A stretch of 64,000 nt of DNA from Blautia sp. (lineage in GTDB: Bacteria; Bacillota; Clostridia; Lachnospirales; Lachnospiraceae). The position numbers and the translations under genes were made by a program. Positions 24,794 through 59,079 of this stretch are shown piece by piece (position 1 is the first letter of the stretch; each line of letters starts with the position of its first letter). The notes under the pieces are model-generated. The model was not told where the DNA came from, did not search any database, and saw only the letters and a list, made by a program, of their open reading frames with translations. The stretch covers positions 62,001 through 126,000 of the forward strand of contig JAFTPT010000020.1 in assembly GCA_017463155.1 (NCBI GenBank), read 5' to 3'.

Positions 24794-24843
24794 ACTTTGT
24801 TAATTAATTATCAGAATCAGTATTGACAATGAATTAACAAAGT
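24794..24843. repeat. 12-bp perfect inverted repeat over the riboswitch promoter
   Basis: ACTTTGTTAATT at 24794-24805 is the exact reverse complement of AATTAACAAAGT at 24832-24843. The right arm fills most of the -35/-10 spacer, and the -35 box itself lies between the arms. This looks like a pair of regulator half-sites. No regulator can be named from the sequence. Confidence 0.75.
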
Positions 24844-24851
24844 GCTATCAT
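24823..24851 (+). promoter_or_regulatory. promoter of the Mn2+-riboswitch operon
   Basis: TTGACA at 24823-24828, 17 bases, TATCAT at 24846-24851. Transcription would start near 24858, directly ahead of the aptamer. Confidence 0.88.
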
Positions 24852-24860
24852 ACAATCAAT

Positions 24861-24958
24861 CCAAGTAAGGGAGTAGCCAGACACCCGGAAGGGTGGATTT
24901 GAGATCGTCAGTACGATCCGATGGATCCGTATCAAATGAAATGGCAAGACTTACATTG
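24861..24958 (+). promoter_or_regulatory. Mn2+-sensing riboswitch aptamer (yybP-ykoY type)
   Basis: The leader contains the hallmark AAGGGAGTAGCC (24867-24878), ATCGTCA (24904-24910) and, at the 3' side, GGCAAGACTTAC (24943-24954), which match the conserved loop and closing segments of yybP-ykoY RNAs. Visible helices are P1 GTAAG (24865-24869) with CTTAC (24950-24954), a hairpin CACCC-GGAA-GGGTG (24882-24895), and a third helix ATTTGA (24897-24902) with TCAAAT (24932-24937) enclosing an inner hairpin. This class binds Mn2+ and usually turns genes on. Assignment is by eye against the known consensus; a covariance-model scan (Rfam RF00080) would settle it. Confidence 0.85.
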
Positions 24959-24988
24959 TGACAACGGTCATGATGTGAGTCTTTTTTT
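24946..24988 (+). terminator. riboswitch-controlled intrinsic terminator
   Basis: AAGACTTACAT (24946-24956) pairs with ATGTGAGTCTT (24973-24983) with one G-U pair, followed by a T run to 24988. Its 5' arm includes the CTTAC that closes aptamer helix P1, so ligand-stabilised P1 and the terminator exclude each other. This predicts that Mn2+ switches expression on. Confidence 0.88.
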
Positions 24989-25054
24989 GATTCATAGGAA
25001 AGCACTCCGTACTTTTCCTATGAGAGACTTACTATGATAAGGAGGTACATGAAA

Positions 25055-25282
25055 ATGACAGGAATGATCATCTTTTTGCTGCTGATGGCAGCGATCGGCT
25101 CCAGGGGTTCCTATAACGCCGGACGCCGTTCCGTCTGGGGAATGCTTCCGTTGTGCCTGCTTGGCCTGATGTTCTTCAGTCCAGTGCTGGGACTCGGCCT
25201 GATCCTCGTACGATTGGTTTTCAAGGTCCTGATCGTTTTGTTTCTGATCAGGTTCGCAGCTGCCTTCCTGGCGCGCCTTTGA
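25055..25282 (+). CDS. very small membrane protein under Mn2+ riboswitch control
   Basis: About 75 residues, almost entirely hydrophobic, with two or three probable membrane segments (MIIFLLLMAAI, WGMLPLCLLGLMFF and LGLILVRLVFKVLIVLFLI) separated by a short basic loop (GSYNAGRRS). ATG 25055 is chosen because AAGGAGGT ends 8 bases upstream; in-frame ATGs at 25034 and 25049 are less well placed. I recognise no family. It is the first gene after the riboswitch terminator and has the same direction as the next two genes, which suggests a membrane role tied to Mn2+ or to the stress signalled by Mn2+. Confidence 0.75.
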   Translation: MTGMIIFLLLMAAIGSRGSYNAGRRSVWGMLPLCLLGLMFFSPVLGLGLILVRLVFKVLIVLFLIRFAAAFLARL

Positions 25283-25336
25283 CCGGAAGGTCTGTGGGCG
25301 AAGCCGGTGGGACAGATCGGAAAGGAGGAGGGGAAG

Positions 25337-25495
25337 ATGAATCCGATCCTGGTGTTTTATCTGTTTGTTGGCGCCGTGATCCTTTGGGGACTGCTGGTTT
25401 GGCTGTTTCCGAAGATCGGCAAGTTTTTGAAAGACTATGGGAAAGAATTCTCAGATATCATGAACGAGGAGGATGACGATGATGATGGAGAATGA
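25337..25495 (+). CDS. tiny single-pass membrane protein with acidic tail
   Basis: About 52 residues: one membrane segment (ILVFYLFVGAVILWGLLVWLF), an amphipathic basic stretch (KIGKFLKDYGKEF) and a tail ending in EEDDDDDGE. ATG 25337 is chosen because AAAGGAGG sits 8 bases before it. No family is recognised. The polyacidic tail could bind divalent metal ions, which would fit control by a Mn2+ riboswitch, but this is inference. Its 3' end may overlap the next gene if the upstream start of that gene is used. Confidence 0.65.
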   Translation: MNPILVFYLFVGAVILWGLLVWLFPKIGKFLKDYGKEFSDIMNEEDDDDDGE

Positions 25496-25589
25496 TCCGA
25501 ACATGACCGAAAGAACCGAAGGTACTGTAACCGAAGCAAAAACGAACGAAACACTGCAAAAGAACAATCATTTTCAGAGGAGAAGAACC

Positions 25590-26567
25590 ATGAAGGAACG
25601 TAAACCAATGACCAGAGGAAAACTCGGAGCGATCGTAACAGGTGTTGTTATATTCGTTCTTTTGATCACAGGCATCAAATGTATGGAAAAGATCCCTGCC
25701 GGCTATGTCGGAATCGTCTACAGCATGAACGGCGGTGTCTCGGACGACGTGCTGACCCAGGGCTGGCACCTGGTAGCGCCGACCAAGGAAGTGACACTGT
25801 ATTCCGTAGGAATCGAGCAAAGCTACCTGACATCGACGCGCGAAGGTGATTCCCAGAACGACGACAGCTTTGAGGTCCCGACCTCCGATGGAAAAGGCCT
25901 CATCGTTGATCTTACCTTTACCTACCGGTATGATCCGGAGGACGTCACAAAGCTGTTTACCAGATTTAAGGGCCAGTCCGGCAAGGAAGTTCGTGATTCT
26001 TTTATCAAACCGAATATCATTTCCTGGACCAAGGAAGTGACGGCCAAATATCCGGTCACGGAGATCCTCGGCGACGAGCGTGCAAACCTGAACATAGCCA
26101 TTTCCGAGTATATCAAGAACAAATTTGAGCCCTACGGGATCATCGTGGAGAATGTCAGCCTGATCAACATTGACGCCGACGCGGATACGCGTGCAGCCGT
26201 ACAGCGTAAGGTCACCGCCCAGCAGGAACTGGAGCTCGCGCAGATCGAGCAGAAAACAGCCAATGTGCAGGCCCAGAAGGACAAGGAAGTCGCCTTGATC
26301 CAGGCTCAGCAGAACAAGGAAACCGCCGAGATCGAGGCTGAACAGGCCAAGATCAAGGCTGAAGGTCAGGCCGAAGCCATCCGCATCAAAGCCGAGGCGG
26401 AAGCCGCCGCCAACAAACTGATCGCGGAATCCCTGACTCCGGAACTGATCGAGAAACAAAAGATCGACAAATGGAACGGCGACGTTCCGAAGGTGTCCGG
26501 CAGCGGCGCGTCGATCATCAGCATCGACGGTATCGGTGTGAATGACAGCAAAGCAGCAACCGAATAA
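25590..26567 (+). CDS. SPFH/Band-7 (prohibitin/HflC-like) membrane scaffold protein
   Basis: 325 residues from ATG 25590, which has AGAGGAGA 7 bases upstream. The frame stays open to 25473 and another GAGGAGG lies there, so a form with about 39 more residues, overlapping the previous gene, is possible. One N-terminal membrane segment (about residues 11-28) precedes an SPFH domain starting at KIPAGYVGIVYSMNGGVSD, with the typical LTQGWHLVAP and FTYRYDPEDV. A long Glu/Ala/Lys coiled coil follows (about residues 205-280, EVALIQAQQNKETAEIEAEQ). Such proteins form ring-like membrane scaffolds that organise or control proteases and transporters. It is the main product of the riboswitch-controlled transcript. 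Confidence 0.88.
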   Translation: MKERKPMTRGKLGAIVTGVVIFVLLITGIKCMEKIPAGYVGIVYSMNGGVSDDVLTQGWHLVAPTKEVTLYSVGIEQSYLTSTREGDSQNDDSFEVPTSDGKGLIVDLTFTYRYDPEDVTKLFTRFKGQSGKEVRDSFIKPNIISWTKEVTAKYPVTEILGDERANLNIAISEYIKNKFEPYGIIVENVSLINIDADADTRAAVQRKVTAQQELELAQIEQKTANVQAQKDKEVALIQAQQNKETAEIEAEQAKIKAEGQAEAIRIKAEAEAAANKLIAESLTPELIEKQKIDKWNGDVPKVSGSGASIISIDGIGVNDSKAATE

Positions 26568-26721: not shown

Positions 26722-28779
26722 TCATTTCAGGAATGTCAATCCCAGCATGGTGATGTCGTCAAACTGTTCGGCGTCTCCGACAAAGCTCTGGATATCCTGG
26801 CGTACCTCTGTCAAGGTATCCTGCATGGAATGCTCTTTCAATTCGTTCAGTTTCTTTACCAGGCGTTCCGTGCCGTATTGCTCGGTATTCTCGTTGATCG
26901 CTTCCGGTACACCGTCTGTATACACGAATAAACGGTCTCCGTGCTGAAGCGTAAGCTCATACTCCTTATACGGCATATCTTCCATCGCCGCCAGTGCCAG
27001 GCCGTGCTTATCCTTTACGAGTTCATAATCGCCGGAAGCTCCTTCCGTAAGGTCCGGAACATGCATGATCACCGGATATTCGTGACCGGCATTCGCGCAG
27101 CGCATATGACCGGTCGTAAGGTTCAAGATCCCGATCCAGGCTGTCACGAACATCTGTGCGTCATTTCCCTCGCAAAGCCGATTGTTGGCAGCGGAAAGGA
27201 TCTTCGAAGGAGAACGGCCCTCTTCGGCCAGACTCCGGATCGCGGTCTTGCTCTGCATCATGAACAGTGCCGCCGGTATTCCTTTTCCGGAAACGTCGGC
27301 GATGACGAGCGCCAGCTCTTTATCATTGACAAAGAAGAAATCATAAAAATCGCCGCCGACCTCTTTGGCCGGGTCCATGGAGGCATACAGATCAAAATGA
27401 CCGATCGAGGCATAGAACTTTTTGGGAAGAGCCGAATCCTGGATCTTCCGCGCAAGCTCCAGCTCCTCCTCCATTCGCTTTTCGGCTGCGGAGATATAGC
27501 CCTTCAGCACCTCGACCGTATAGTTGATATCATCGGAAAGGGACGCGAACTCCGAAGAACTGCGTACCTTAACCTCTTCCGACAGGTCCCCGCTCGCGAT
27601 CCGGCTGAGTGATCTGTTGACGAGATCAAGATTATTTACAACGATCTGCTGAACCAGCTGCGATACCAGCATATACACGACCGTAAGAAGAAGGATCGAT
27701 GCCAGGCCGGTTTCATAAGCCTGCTCCTCCCGGTCCTCATAGACCTCCGACATGGGAATCGTCGTCAACAGCCGTAATCCGGCATTAAGATCATCGACCC
27801 GGCAGAGGGATTCTTTTCCAAACATGACGGACTGGAAGCATTTTCCCTTCTCCGCCTTGTTGACGGACTGCAGATCCTGCAAAGAAAGTGATCTTTCGCC
27901 GTGATTGCCGAGCTTGATGAGGCCCGAGCTTCCGATCAGATCCAGGGTGCCTTCCGTCCCGGCGTGAAAATAGGAAAAGGACTCACCCAGGATGTTCTTC
28001 TCATAGATACTGGTCAGATCCTCCGCCACCGTATCGATCGTGGCTCTCGCATACTGGACGGCACGCTGGGTCTGGATCGCATACGAACCTAAAAAAGACC
28101 CCAGGAGGATCAACGTCATCACGCCAAAAAGCCAGAACTGGAACTTCTGGGAGACCGTGATCTCCTCCCCTTTCAGATGGAAGTAGAGCTTTTTACCGGT
28201 GCTCTTAAGGATGACCAGCGAGCAGACGGCCATTCCGATGCCCGTAAAGATGATCATGGGGCCGGCACAGTTCTTGACCACGTAGAACGCCATATCCATA
28301 TCACTGCGGTGCGTGATGAATACGACGTACATGTGAAAGACTTCCATCACGGCGCCCAGGAAAAAGGAATAAAGAATGGACGGCTTTTTACGTTTCAGGA
28401 TAAACACACTCACGCCGGCCGCGACAAAGCCGGCCAGACATGTGGAGACACTGCAGGCGATGCGCGTATAGGAGCCCACGCCCCAGTATGTGCCTGCAAT
28501 GTAACGCTCAATGCCGCCGATCAGCCCTGCGATGATACCGGAAACAGGATCAAAGAAAAGGCCGGCCGCAAGCGGGCCCATATCCCGCACATTCATCATC
28601 ATGTGCTTGTAGTCTACCCCGAAATGCGTGGATAAGACTGCCATCCCACCGTAGATCAGGCCAAACAATATCTTCCGGGACACTGTCAGCTTCTTACCTT
28701 CCATCCACTTCCAGAGAAAAAAGGTGAGGATCACGTACAGCGCCGCCGCCCCGGACATCTTGATGATCATTAAAAACAT
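26722..28779 (-). CDS. SpoIIE-family protein phosphatase with 5TM-LYT sensor and HAMP
   Basis: A 685-residue membrane phosphatase. The N-terminal 190 residues form a five- to six-helix 5TM receptor of the LytS/YhcK type (NVRDMGPLAAGLFFDPVSGIIAGLIGGIERY). A further membrane helix, an extracytoplasmic sensor stretch and another helix lead into a HAMP domain (about residues 385-440) and a coiled linker (ARKIQDSALPKKF). The PP2C/SpoIIE phosphatase domain has GGDFYDFF and DVSGKGIPAALFM near residues 475-510 and DRLFVYTDGVPEAIN. Such enzymes dephosphorylate anti-anti-sigma-like proteins in partner-switching systems; no partner is encoded nearby. The target is therefore unknown. Confidence 0.88.
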   Translation of the reverse strand: MFLMIIKMSGAAALYVILTFFLWKWMEGKKLTVSRKILFGLIYGGMAVLSTHFGVDYKHMMMNVRDMGPLAAGLFFDPVSGIIAGLIGGIERYIAGTYWGVGSYTRIACSVSTCLAGFVAAGVSVFILKRKKPSILYSFFLGAVMEVFHMYVVFITHRSDMDMAFYVVKNCAGPMIIFTGIGMAVCSLVILKSTGKKLYFHLKGEEITVSQKFQFWLFGVMTLILLGSFLGSYAIQTQRAVQYARATIDTVAEDLTSIYEKNILGESFSYFHAGTEGTLDLIGSSGLIKLGNHGERSLSLQDLQSVNKAEKGKCFQSVMFGKESLCRVDDLNAGLRLLTTIPMSEVYEDREEQAYETGLASILLLTVVYMLVSQLVQQIVVNNLDLVNRSLSRIASGDLSEEVKVRSSSEFASLSDDINYTVEVLKGYISAAEKRMEEELELARKIQDSALPKKFYASIGHFDLYASMDPAKEVGGDFYDFFFVNDKELALVIADVSGKGIPAALFMMQSKTAIRSLAEEGRSPSKILSAANNRLCEGNDAQMFVTAWIGILNLTTGHMRCANAGHEYPVIMHVPDLTEGASGDYELVKDKHGLALAAMEDMPYKEYELTLQHGDRLFVYTDGVPEAINENTEQYGTERLVKKLNELKEHSMQDTLTEVRQDIQSFVGDAEQFDDITMLGLTFLK

Positions 28780-58767: not shown

Positions 58768-58834
58768 TCAGACTTCCGTAATCGGCGGCACGATCAGTTT
58801 CTCGTGATCTGGGGGGCTCTCCCCTGTACCAATC

Positions 58835-58999
58835 CATCAGGCAGGTTTCCTGGCTCGCAGATCGATGCGGCATATGCGCCTTCCCGGTTTCCCAGTGACA
58901 TTCATGCAAATGCTGCTCCCTGCATACAGTGACGAGTTCGCGCAGGCCTTACACCTGCTTCCCTATTATCCCGCGGAACGATTCCGCAGGCACCTGATG
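58835..58999 (-). promoter_or_regulatory. cobalamin (adenosylcobalamin-type) riboswitch
   Basis: The minus strand shows the conserved elements in order. The closing helix P1 is CATCAGG (58999-58993) with CCTGATG (58841-58835). Inside are GGGAAGCAGGTGTAAGGCC, GAACTCGTCACTGT, GGGAGC, ATGAATGTCACTGG (the B12-box region) and CTGGGAAACCGGGAAGG, then GAGCCAGGAAACCTGCC. It controls cbiK and probably the small exported protein. A covariance scan with the cobalamin models would confirm it. The rest of the 58645-59134 gap holds the terminator, the leader and the promoter. Confidence 0.93.
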
Positions 59000-59010
59000 C
59001 ACAAGTATGA

Positions 59011-59079
59011 AATTAGGATGTTCACCCGCAGGGATCGTTCCGGATCCGGCCGGAAAAACACTGCGGAAACATCCTAATT
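59011..59079. repeat. 12-bp inverted repeat in front of the cobalamin leader
   Basis: AATTAGGATGTT (59011-59022) and AACATCCTAATT (59068-59079) are exact reverse complements. CCGCAG and CTGCGG form an inner pair. The outer right arm abuts the -10 box of the cbiK promoter, so it may be an operator or an RNA hairpin at the 5' end. Confidence 0.7.

What the first reader, a model, noticed from the sequence alone, without database searches (positions are those of the whole stretch)
24823..26567. Mn2+-type riboswitch controls two tiny membrane proteins and an SPFH protein
The sequence shows a strong promoter, the conserved yybP-ykoY elements, and a terminator whose 5' arm shares CTTAC with aptamer helix P1. 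It is established that this class senses Mn2+ and usually controls Mn2+ exporters (MntP), TerC-type proteins or P-type ATPases. Here the genes are a membrane protein of about 75 residues, a 52-residue single-pass protein with a Glu/Asp tail and an SPFH scaffold protein. It is inference that they form a membrane complex for Mn2+ handling or Mn2+-linked envelope stress.
Basis: partly seen in the sequence, partly recalled or inferred. Interest (0 to 1): 0.85.

Follow-up and report, generated by a model that had tools for sequence, protein, structure and literature searches.

The report
Manganese-type riboswitch controlling membrane scaffold genes
An RNA switch of the kind that senses manganese sits in front of a membrane-scaffold (SPFH) gene and two tiny membrane proteins, and related switches in this group of bacteria repeatedly precede scaffold and envelope genes instead of metal pumps.

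Summary
Window 24862-24957 carries a yybP-ykoY-type aptamer between a near-consensus promoter and a 17-pair terminator that shares CUUAC with helix P1. A covariance model built from 16 other aptamers, without this one, finds it at 78.9 bits (E 6e-18), the only hit in the window. Rfam's RF00080 misses it, but at its gathering score it also misses 20 of 20 related loci tested, so that failure says little.

It is not a one-off. Of 69 aptamer sites sampled without regard to gene content, 17 precede SPFH genes. Sites whose metal-sensing loop L3 has a two-base linker precede SPFH or c3/YccF genes in 64 of 64 assigned cases and transporters in none; with longer linkers 59 of 76 precede transporters (relatedness not corrected). 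Outside the order, 16 of 16 readable sites among the best-scoring loci precede transporters.

The window's own L3 is canonical, so Mn2+-ON control is likely. Ligand, polarity and function are inferred; nothing was tested at the bench.

The parts
24823..24851 (+). sigma-70-type promoter TTGACA-N17-TATCAT with extended -10 TG
   Evidence: 11 of 12 matches; sequence
24862..24957 (+). yybP-ykoY-type (Mn2+ riboswitch) aptamer, three-way junction without P4
   Evidence: covariance model R1 made without this site: 78.9 bits, E 6.3e-18; pattern
24906..24915 (+). L3 metal-sensing strand CGUCAGUACG; A24910 aligns with the Mn2+-contacting A41 (L. lactis)/A48 (X. oryzae), U24912 with U43
   Evidence: sequence; numbering of known aptamers from passages of PMC6754395; assignment by alignment, inferred
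24946..24988 (+). intrinsic terminator (hairpin 24946-24983, then U 24984-24988) whose 5' arm contains the 3' strand of P1 (CUUAC 24950-24954)
25055..25282 (+). 75-aa hydrophobic membrane protein (start 25049 or 25034 possible); RBS AGGAGG 25040-25045
   Evidence: weak similarity to tiny proteins beside related aptamers; no NCBIfam hit and no Pfam hit over cut-off
25337..25495 (+). 52-aa single-pass protein with Glu/Asp-rich tail
   Evidence: no Pfam hit
25473..26567 (+). SPFH/Band_7 protein, 364 aa (325 aa if it starts at 25591, which also has an RBS-like stretch); overlaps the 52-aa ORF
   Evidence: PF01145 E 2.6e-29

Best explanation
A yybP-ykoY-type riboswitch acts as an ON switch by transcription attenuation. 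Without ligand, the 3' strand of P1 joins the terminator and transcription stops near 24988. When Mn2+ fills the L1-L3 site, P1 is held, the terminator cannot form fully, and the operon for the 75-aa protein, the 52-aa protein and the SPFH scaffold is transcribed. Shown: sequence and structure elements, mutual exclusion of P1 and terminator on paper, gene order, recurrence of aptamer-SPFH pairs. Inferred: ligand Mn2+ (canonical L3 with A24910 and U24912), ON polarity (from the L. lactis homologue), and the role of the products, which I think most likely is membrane quality control when Mn2+ rises (scaffolding of FtsH, translocon or transporter complexes), not Mn2+ transport itself.
For: Covariance model made without this site: 78.9 bits, E 6e-18. 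On the 16 relatives it was built from, 14 of 26 pairs change on both sides and the covariation score is 0.381 against 0.166 in shuffles. Terminator -20.6 kcal/mol, lost when the P1 strand is removed. SPFH genes after 17 of 69 order-wide aptamer sites, although Band_7 genes number only 1-7 per genome in the own genome and 20 relatives. Sister aptamers precede an MntP-like gene (NCBIfam 97.7 bits, cut-off 214), Na/Ca exchangers (PF01699 for L026) and P-type ATPases (recognised from sequence), which supports metal sensing. In B. subtilis FloT, FloA and FtsH are listed as co-purifying with the TerC protein MeeF (FloA and FtsH also with MeeY), and meeY is under a Mn2+ riboswitch (passages of PMC10550928).
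Against: RF00080 does not recognise the RNA. No P4 hairpin, so not the four-way junction of the solved structures. Most other SPFH- or c3/YccF-linked aptamers have an altered L3, so this regulon may follow another signal. On the training alignment one covariation measure, further pair types, is not above shuffles (84 of 500 as high). SPFH homologues of six relatives (L003-L008, 1.5 kb flanks) have no aptamer hit, so the gene does not always come with the switch. No ligand or expression data.
Confidence: 0.78

Rival explanations
1. The aptamer belongs to a yybP variant lineage that senses another ion or another state, and the envelope regulon (SPFH, c3/YccF, tiny membrane proteins) responds to that signal; the window copy is part of this lineage despite its canonical linker.
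For: Overall sequence is closest to the short-L3 subfamily: 78.9 bits with R1, transporter-linked sites 23.0-66.5 (caveat: R1 was trained on SPFH- and c3-linked sites, most of them short-L3). Two-base L3 goes with envelope genes in 64 of 64 assigned sites and with transporters in 0. PMC7266159 section 13 (passage seen) expects yybP variants with altered divalent specificity.
Against: The window's linker is GUA, as in 26 of 51 transporter-linked three-base sites; discriminator A and U43 equivalent retained.
Confidence: 0.2
2. The switch reports cytoplasmic alkalinisation together with basal Mn2+, so the operon is an alkaline or proton-motive-force stress response.
For: E. coli alx and mntP leaders respond to alkaline pH, and the mntP leader binds Mn2+ 17-22-fold more tightly at pH 8.5 (passages of PMC9603457). 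Envelope genes fit such a stress.
Against: No pH data for this lineage; the effect was shown in E. coli only.
Confidence: 0.12
3. The leader is a decayed or constitutive attenuator; SPFH is expressed from another promoter.
For: Rfam model below threshold.
Against: Core motifs intact, promoter and terminator in place, no further promoter-like site on the + strand between 24852 and 25473 in the simple scan.
Confidence: 0.05

Closest known systems
yybP-ykoY (Mn2+) riboswitch, RF00080; L. lactis and X. oryzae aptamers
   Same: L1 GGGAGUAGC, L3 CGUCA...CG/CCG, GCAAGAC, P1-P2-P3 order, P1/terminator competition (L. lactis sequence details beyond L3 recalled)
   Different: no P4 (three-way junction); below Rfam detection; SPFH and tiny membrane proteins downstream instead of a Mn2+ exporter, TerC or P-type ATPase
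Flotillin (FloT/FloA) and HflK-HflC SPFH systems
   Same: SPFH domain after an N-terminal membrane segment; flotillin-like and HflK/HflC-type genes sit behind sister aptamers
   Different: window protein is a distinct single Band_7 type (26-30% identity to the nearest aptamer-linked ones); weak HflC match 19.9 bits, cut-off 134.4
Phage-shock-type tiny membrane proteins such as PspG (recalled, not compared)
   Same: short, two hydrophobic stretches, linked to envelope stress
   Different: no Pfam match over cut-off for the window proteins or four of the tiny neighbours

Membership tests
yybP-ykoY riboswitch | conserved L1 GGGAGUAGC and 3' GC(A/G)AGAC closing P1 | tested here: met
   present at 24869-24877 and 24944-24950; its invariance in the 52 sites is no evidence, since the sites were selected by that pattern
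yybP-ykoY riboswitch | L3 with invariable Mn2+-contacting adenosine | tested here: met
   CGUCA at 24906-24910; UCAGUAC here against UCA41AU43UC in L. lactis
yybP-ykoY riboswitch | P1, P2, P3 with internal loops L1 and L3, supported by covariation | tested here: met
   covariation measured on relatives, not on this site
yybP-ykoY riboswitch | four-way junction with P4, as in the solved structures | tested here: not met
   only UGAAA joins P3 and P1 here. I do not treat it as required: read by eye, sites in the same set occur with a hairpin there (e.g. L074, L075, L079) and without
yybP-ykoY riboswitch | RF00080 score over gathering cut-off | tested here: not met
   also 0 of 20 related loci; one match, 17 of 45 bits, in a lax scan of 12 loci; over the cut-off in 2 of 14 control genomes
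yybP-ykoY riboswitch | selective Mn2+ binding | not testable with these tools
   needs in-line probing or calorimetry
SPFH/Band_7 proteins | PF01145 domain over cut-off | tested here: met
   103 bits, cut-off 23.6
HflC equivalog | TIGR01932 over cut-off | tested here: not met
   19.9 of 134.4 bits

The most novel reading that the evidence does not exclude
Lachnospirales carry a distinct lineage of yybP-type riboswitches with a contracted metal-sensing loop (two nucleotides between CGUCA and CG, loss of the U-turn base) that has left metal export altogether and runs an envelope-maintenance regulon: flotillin-like, HflK/HflC-type and single Band_7 proteins, a new 140-residue family with YccF, and tiny two-segment membrane proteins. 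Its ligand may not be Mn2+. The window is a member of this regulon that still has the canonical loop, perhaps an intermediate.
Probability: 0.4. Interest if true: 0.85.

Novelty: new variant of a known kind. Interest (0 to 1): 0.7.

Why it matters
The physiological signals for bacterial flotillins and HflK/HflC are largely open. If a metal-sensing RNA switches them on, it gives a direct handle on when these scaffolds are needed, and links Mn2+ (or a related signal) to membrane quality control. The contracted L3 loop that tracks gene content gives a ready test of the published expectation (PMC7266159) that some yybP variants sense other divalent ions. It also suggests that RF00080 undercounts these switches in Lachnospirales (0 of 20 loci).

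Tried and rejected
Rfam as arbiter: rejected after 20 of 20 related loci failed too at gathering and a lax scan of 12 loci gave one RF00080 match, 17 bits. Orthologues of the window SPFH protein as a route to the same cassette: 7 of 61 genomes including the own one have a match at E<=1e-10; the other six loci show no aptamer. First pattern with gap 30-60 found nothing because the spacing is shorter. The base after CCG as discriminator of gene class: rejected, U also occurs at 19 transporter sites. L3 length as an absolute rule for SPFH: rejected, 13 SPFH sites, the window among them, have three-base linkers. Structure prediction of the c3 family: tool off. Longest-ORF gene calling misread several SPFH loci because of long antisense frames, so gene classes come from profile searches. 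Those profiles were trained on part of the same loci; representatives of flotillin-like, HflK-type, single Band_7, YccF, MntP-like, OadB, CitMHS and Na/Ca classes were checked with Pfam and/or NCBIfam; the P-type ATPase class was named by recognising its sequence and not scanned. Closely related species were not collapsed, so Fisher values overstate independence.

Full report
OBSERVATION. A promoter (TTGACA-N17-TATCAT, 11 of 12 matches, extended -10) ends at 24851. The aptamer runs 24862-24957. A 17-pair terminator hairpin follows, 24946-24983, with U at 24984-24988. The 5' arm of the hairpin contains CUUAC (24950-24954), the 3' strand of helix P1 (GUAAG 24865-24869). Folded alone the terminator gives -20.6 kcal/mol (z -5.96, 0 of 200 shuffles as good); without the nine bases that P1 and L1 use it gives -5.3 (z -0.08, 93 of 200 as good). 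P1 and terminator are therefore mutually exclusive, as in L. lactis, where Mn2+ stabilises P1.1 and prevents termination (passages of PMC11087558).

IDENTITY OF THE RNA. RF00080 gives no hit at gathering in the window, none at E<=10 in the leader, and in the whole genome only a 13.1-bit match on another contig. The best Rfam match to the leader is RF02617 (SSRC10), 15.3 bits against a cut-off of 56. To learn whether this is the RNA or the model, I collected aptamers by the pattern GGAGTAGC-N15..45-CGTCA-N15..45-GCNAGAC in 392 genomes of the order: 68 have a match; the reversed pattern, the tool's control, occurs in 5 by my count. RF00080 found none at gathering in 20 of these loci, including sites before P-type ATPases (L011, L055), a Na/Ca exchanger (L026) and OadB (L022). 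In a lax scan of 12 loci it gave one match, 17 bits. In the tool's 14 control genomes it is over its cut-off in 2. I conclude that the failure is the model's. I then built a covariance model, R1, from 16 SPFH- or c3-linked relatives with the window's site left out. On that alignment 14 of 26 pairs change on both sides (1 of 500 shuffles as many) and the covariation score is 0.381 against 0.166 (0 of 500), while further pair types are not in excess (84 of 500); related sequences can inflate such counts. R1 finds the window at 78.9 bits, E 6.3e-18, and nothing else in 64 kb at E<=10. The 70 pattern loci given to it all scored (E<=0.042), and none of the six SPFH-homologue loci of relatives did at E<=1.

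GENES. Products are a 75-aa hydrophobic protein (25055-25282; the RBS spacing favours 25055 over 25049), a 52-aa single-pass protein with an acidic tail (25337-25495) and an SPFH protein (25473-26567; PF01145 E 2.6e-29), which may instead start at 25591. The simple scan shows no promoter-like site between the leader and the SPFH gene on this strand. A long frame on the other strand, 26722-28779, converges on the unit.

RECURRENCE. Across I have 187 CM-confirmed sites, 165 after removal of identical ones. By first downstream genes: SPFH 31, c3 and/or YccF 54, transporters 60, unassigned 15, too short 5. In the only set chosen without regard to L3 length or gene content (69 order-wide sites) SPFH follows 17. 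Band_7 genes number 1 to 7 per genome, 68 in 21 genomes by my sum, so with a few thousand genes per genome chance would give well under one. The SPFH genes are of different types: flotillin-like (e.g. L047, with Pfam Flot but below NCBIfam's FloT cut-off; L194 Butyrivibrio proteoclasticus P6B7; L049, identical to L225 Butyrivibrio sp. MC2021), HflK/HflC-type pairs (L060, L070, L071, L073, L140, L193; HflK of L073 over the NCBIfam cut-off), single Band_7 proteins (L050-L052, L082, L102, and the window). YccF (PF03733 for L043) comes with a ~140-aa family, here called c3, for which two members gave no Pfam match over cut-off and no NCBIfam match (alignment), e.g. in Blautia schinkii (L192), Faecalicatena faecalis (L208), Anaerostipes sp. 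MSJ-23 (L226). In the class-wide search (58 of 391 genomes with a match, stricter filters) I examined the 19 best loci apart from the window: two could not be read by motif; the 17 others, 16 of them outside the order, precede transporters. The envelope association thus looks like a Lachnospirales innovation, within this sample; four SPFH-linked short-L3 sites lie in a second family of the order (G120, G171, G187, G209).

THE METAL LOOP. In the solved aptamers Mn2+ is held by N7 of an invariable adenosine in L3 (A41 in L. lactis, UCA41AU43UC) with U43 making a U-turn (passages of PMC6754395). I measured the linker between CGUCA (or CGACA) and the CG below P3.2 by script. Two-base linkers: SPFH 17, c3/YccF 47, transporter 0, unassigned 8, too short 4. 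Three-base: SPFH 13, c3/YccF 4, transporter 51, unassigned 7, too short 1. Four- and five-base: transporter 8. Five sites could not be parsed (SPFH 1, c3/YccF 3, transporter 1). Note that the sites were selected for the two-base form and the sites by a model trained mostly on it. In the unselected 69, 14 of 14 assigned two-base sites are envelope-linked against 9 of 49 with longer linkers, Fisher p 2e-8; in the set 18 of 18 against 8 of 27, p 1e-6; both ignore relatedness. Among three-base linkers the middle base is U at 44 of 51 transporter sites but 4 of 17 SPFH/c3 sites (counts). The window has GUA, the commonest transporter form, so it is one of the exceptions, while its overall sequence is nearest the short-L3 group. 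I read this as Mn2+ sensing retained here, with an open question for the short-L3 group. A review expects yybP variants with altered specificity (PMC7266159 section 13, passage seen).

TINY MEMBRANE PROTEINS. Several unassigned, truncated or c3-linked sites carry a tiny very hydrophobic protein near the aptamer: L122, L124, L125, L149, L174, L176, L224, L228. The window's 75-aa protein aligns over nearly its whole length with L176 (score 58, 0 of 200 shuffles as high) and scores 50 with L125 (0 of 200), less with L224 (2 of 200) and L228 (9 of 200); nine comparisons were made for it, the other five gave z of 2 or less, and composition shuffles are a weak control for membrane proteins. I treat homology as suggestive. 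The 52-aa protein matched none of them (z of 2 or less).

MECHANISM. Steps shown: aptamer, exclusive P1/terminator, gene order, recurrence. Steps inferred: ligand, polarity, co-transcription, function. The best link to function is published: in B. subtilis FloT, FloA and FtsH are listed as co-purifying with the TerC protein MeeF, FtsH is essential without MeeF and MeeY, and meeY is under a Mn2+ riboswitch (passages of PMC10550928). An SPFH scaffold under the same kind of switch would fit a role in quality control of Mn2+-related membrane or secretion complexes.

LITERATURE. In the held library no paper joins 'manganese riboswitch' and 'flotillin'; 'yybP-ykoY' with 'flotillin' gives two entries, the TerC paper and, as I read the listing, its preprint; 'riboswitch' with 'YccF' gives one Listeria cold-stress study (listing only); any two of 'yybP-ykoY', 'riboswitch', 'SPFH': 89 papers, none of the 30 listed contains SPFH (listing). 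Dambach 2015 and Price 2015 are not held, so a mention of SPFH genes there cannot be excluded.

VERDICT. It is a known riboswitch class with a kind of target I found no report of in the searches named above, plus a probable L3 variant. Ligand and function need the bench.

Noticed in passing
window 58823-59012 (-): Cobalamin riboswitch, 108 bits.
   Followed up: no
L053 5825-5915 (-), = G000:C2:26831-26906 region: A second, canonical aptamer in the same genome, upstream of a CitMHS/ArsB-like permease.
   Followed up: partly
Rfam RF02617 (SSRC10) against L022, L038, L021, L018 and the window: SSRC10, filed as a Streptococcus sRNA, is the best Rfam match (15-36 bits, below its cut-off of 56) to these yybP-type leaders, and its consensus shares GGGAGUAGC, CGUCAAUACG and GCGAGAC; it may itself be a Mn2+ riboswitch.
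   Followed up: no
e.g. L192 5955-6377 (-), L211 3385-3804 (-): Uncharacterised ~140-aa family (motifs W-G-x-x-D...GG...KH and FADFFFDG) often followed by YccF behind short-L3 aptamers; two members scanned gave no Pfam match over cut-off and no NCBIfam match.
   Followed up: partly
L022, L023, L024, L072, L084, L285, L287: Na+-translocating decarboxylase beta subunit (OadB; PF03977 confirmed for L072, others by profile) directly behind canonical aptamers.
   Followed up: no
G614 loci L122, L127, L130, L133: One Lachnospiraceae genome has four R1 aptamers: before a tiny membrane protein, an unknown gene, a flotillin-like gene and a CitMHS permease.
   Followed up: partly
L112, L113, L114, L107: Short-L3 aptamers with CGACA instead of CGUCA in the metal loop, otherwise intact; L112 precedes c3 and YccF, L107 precedes c3.
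   Followed up: no
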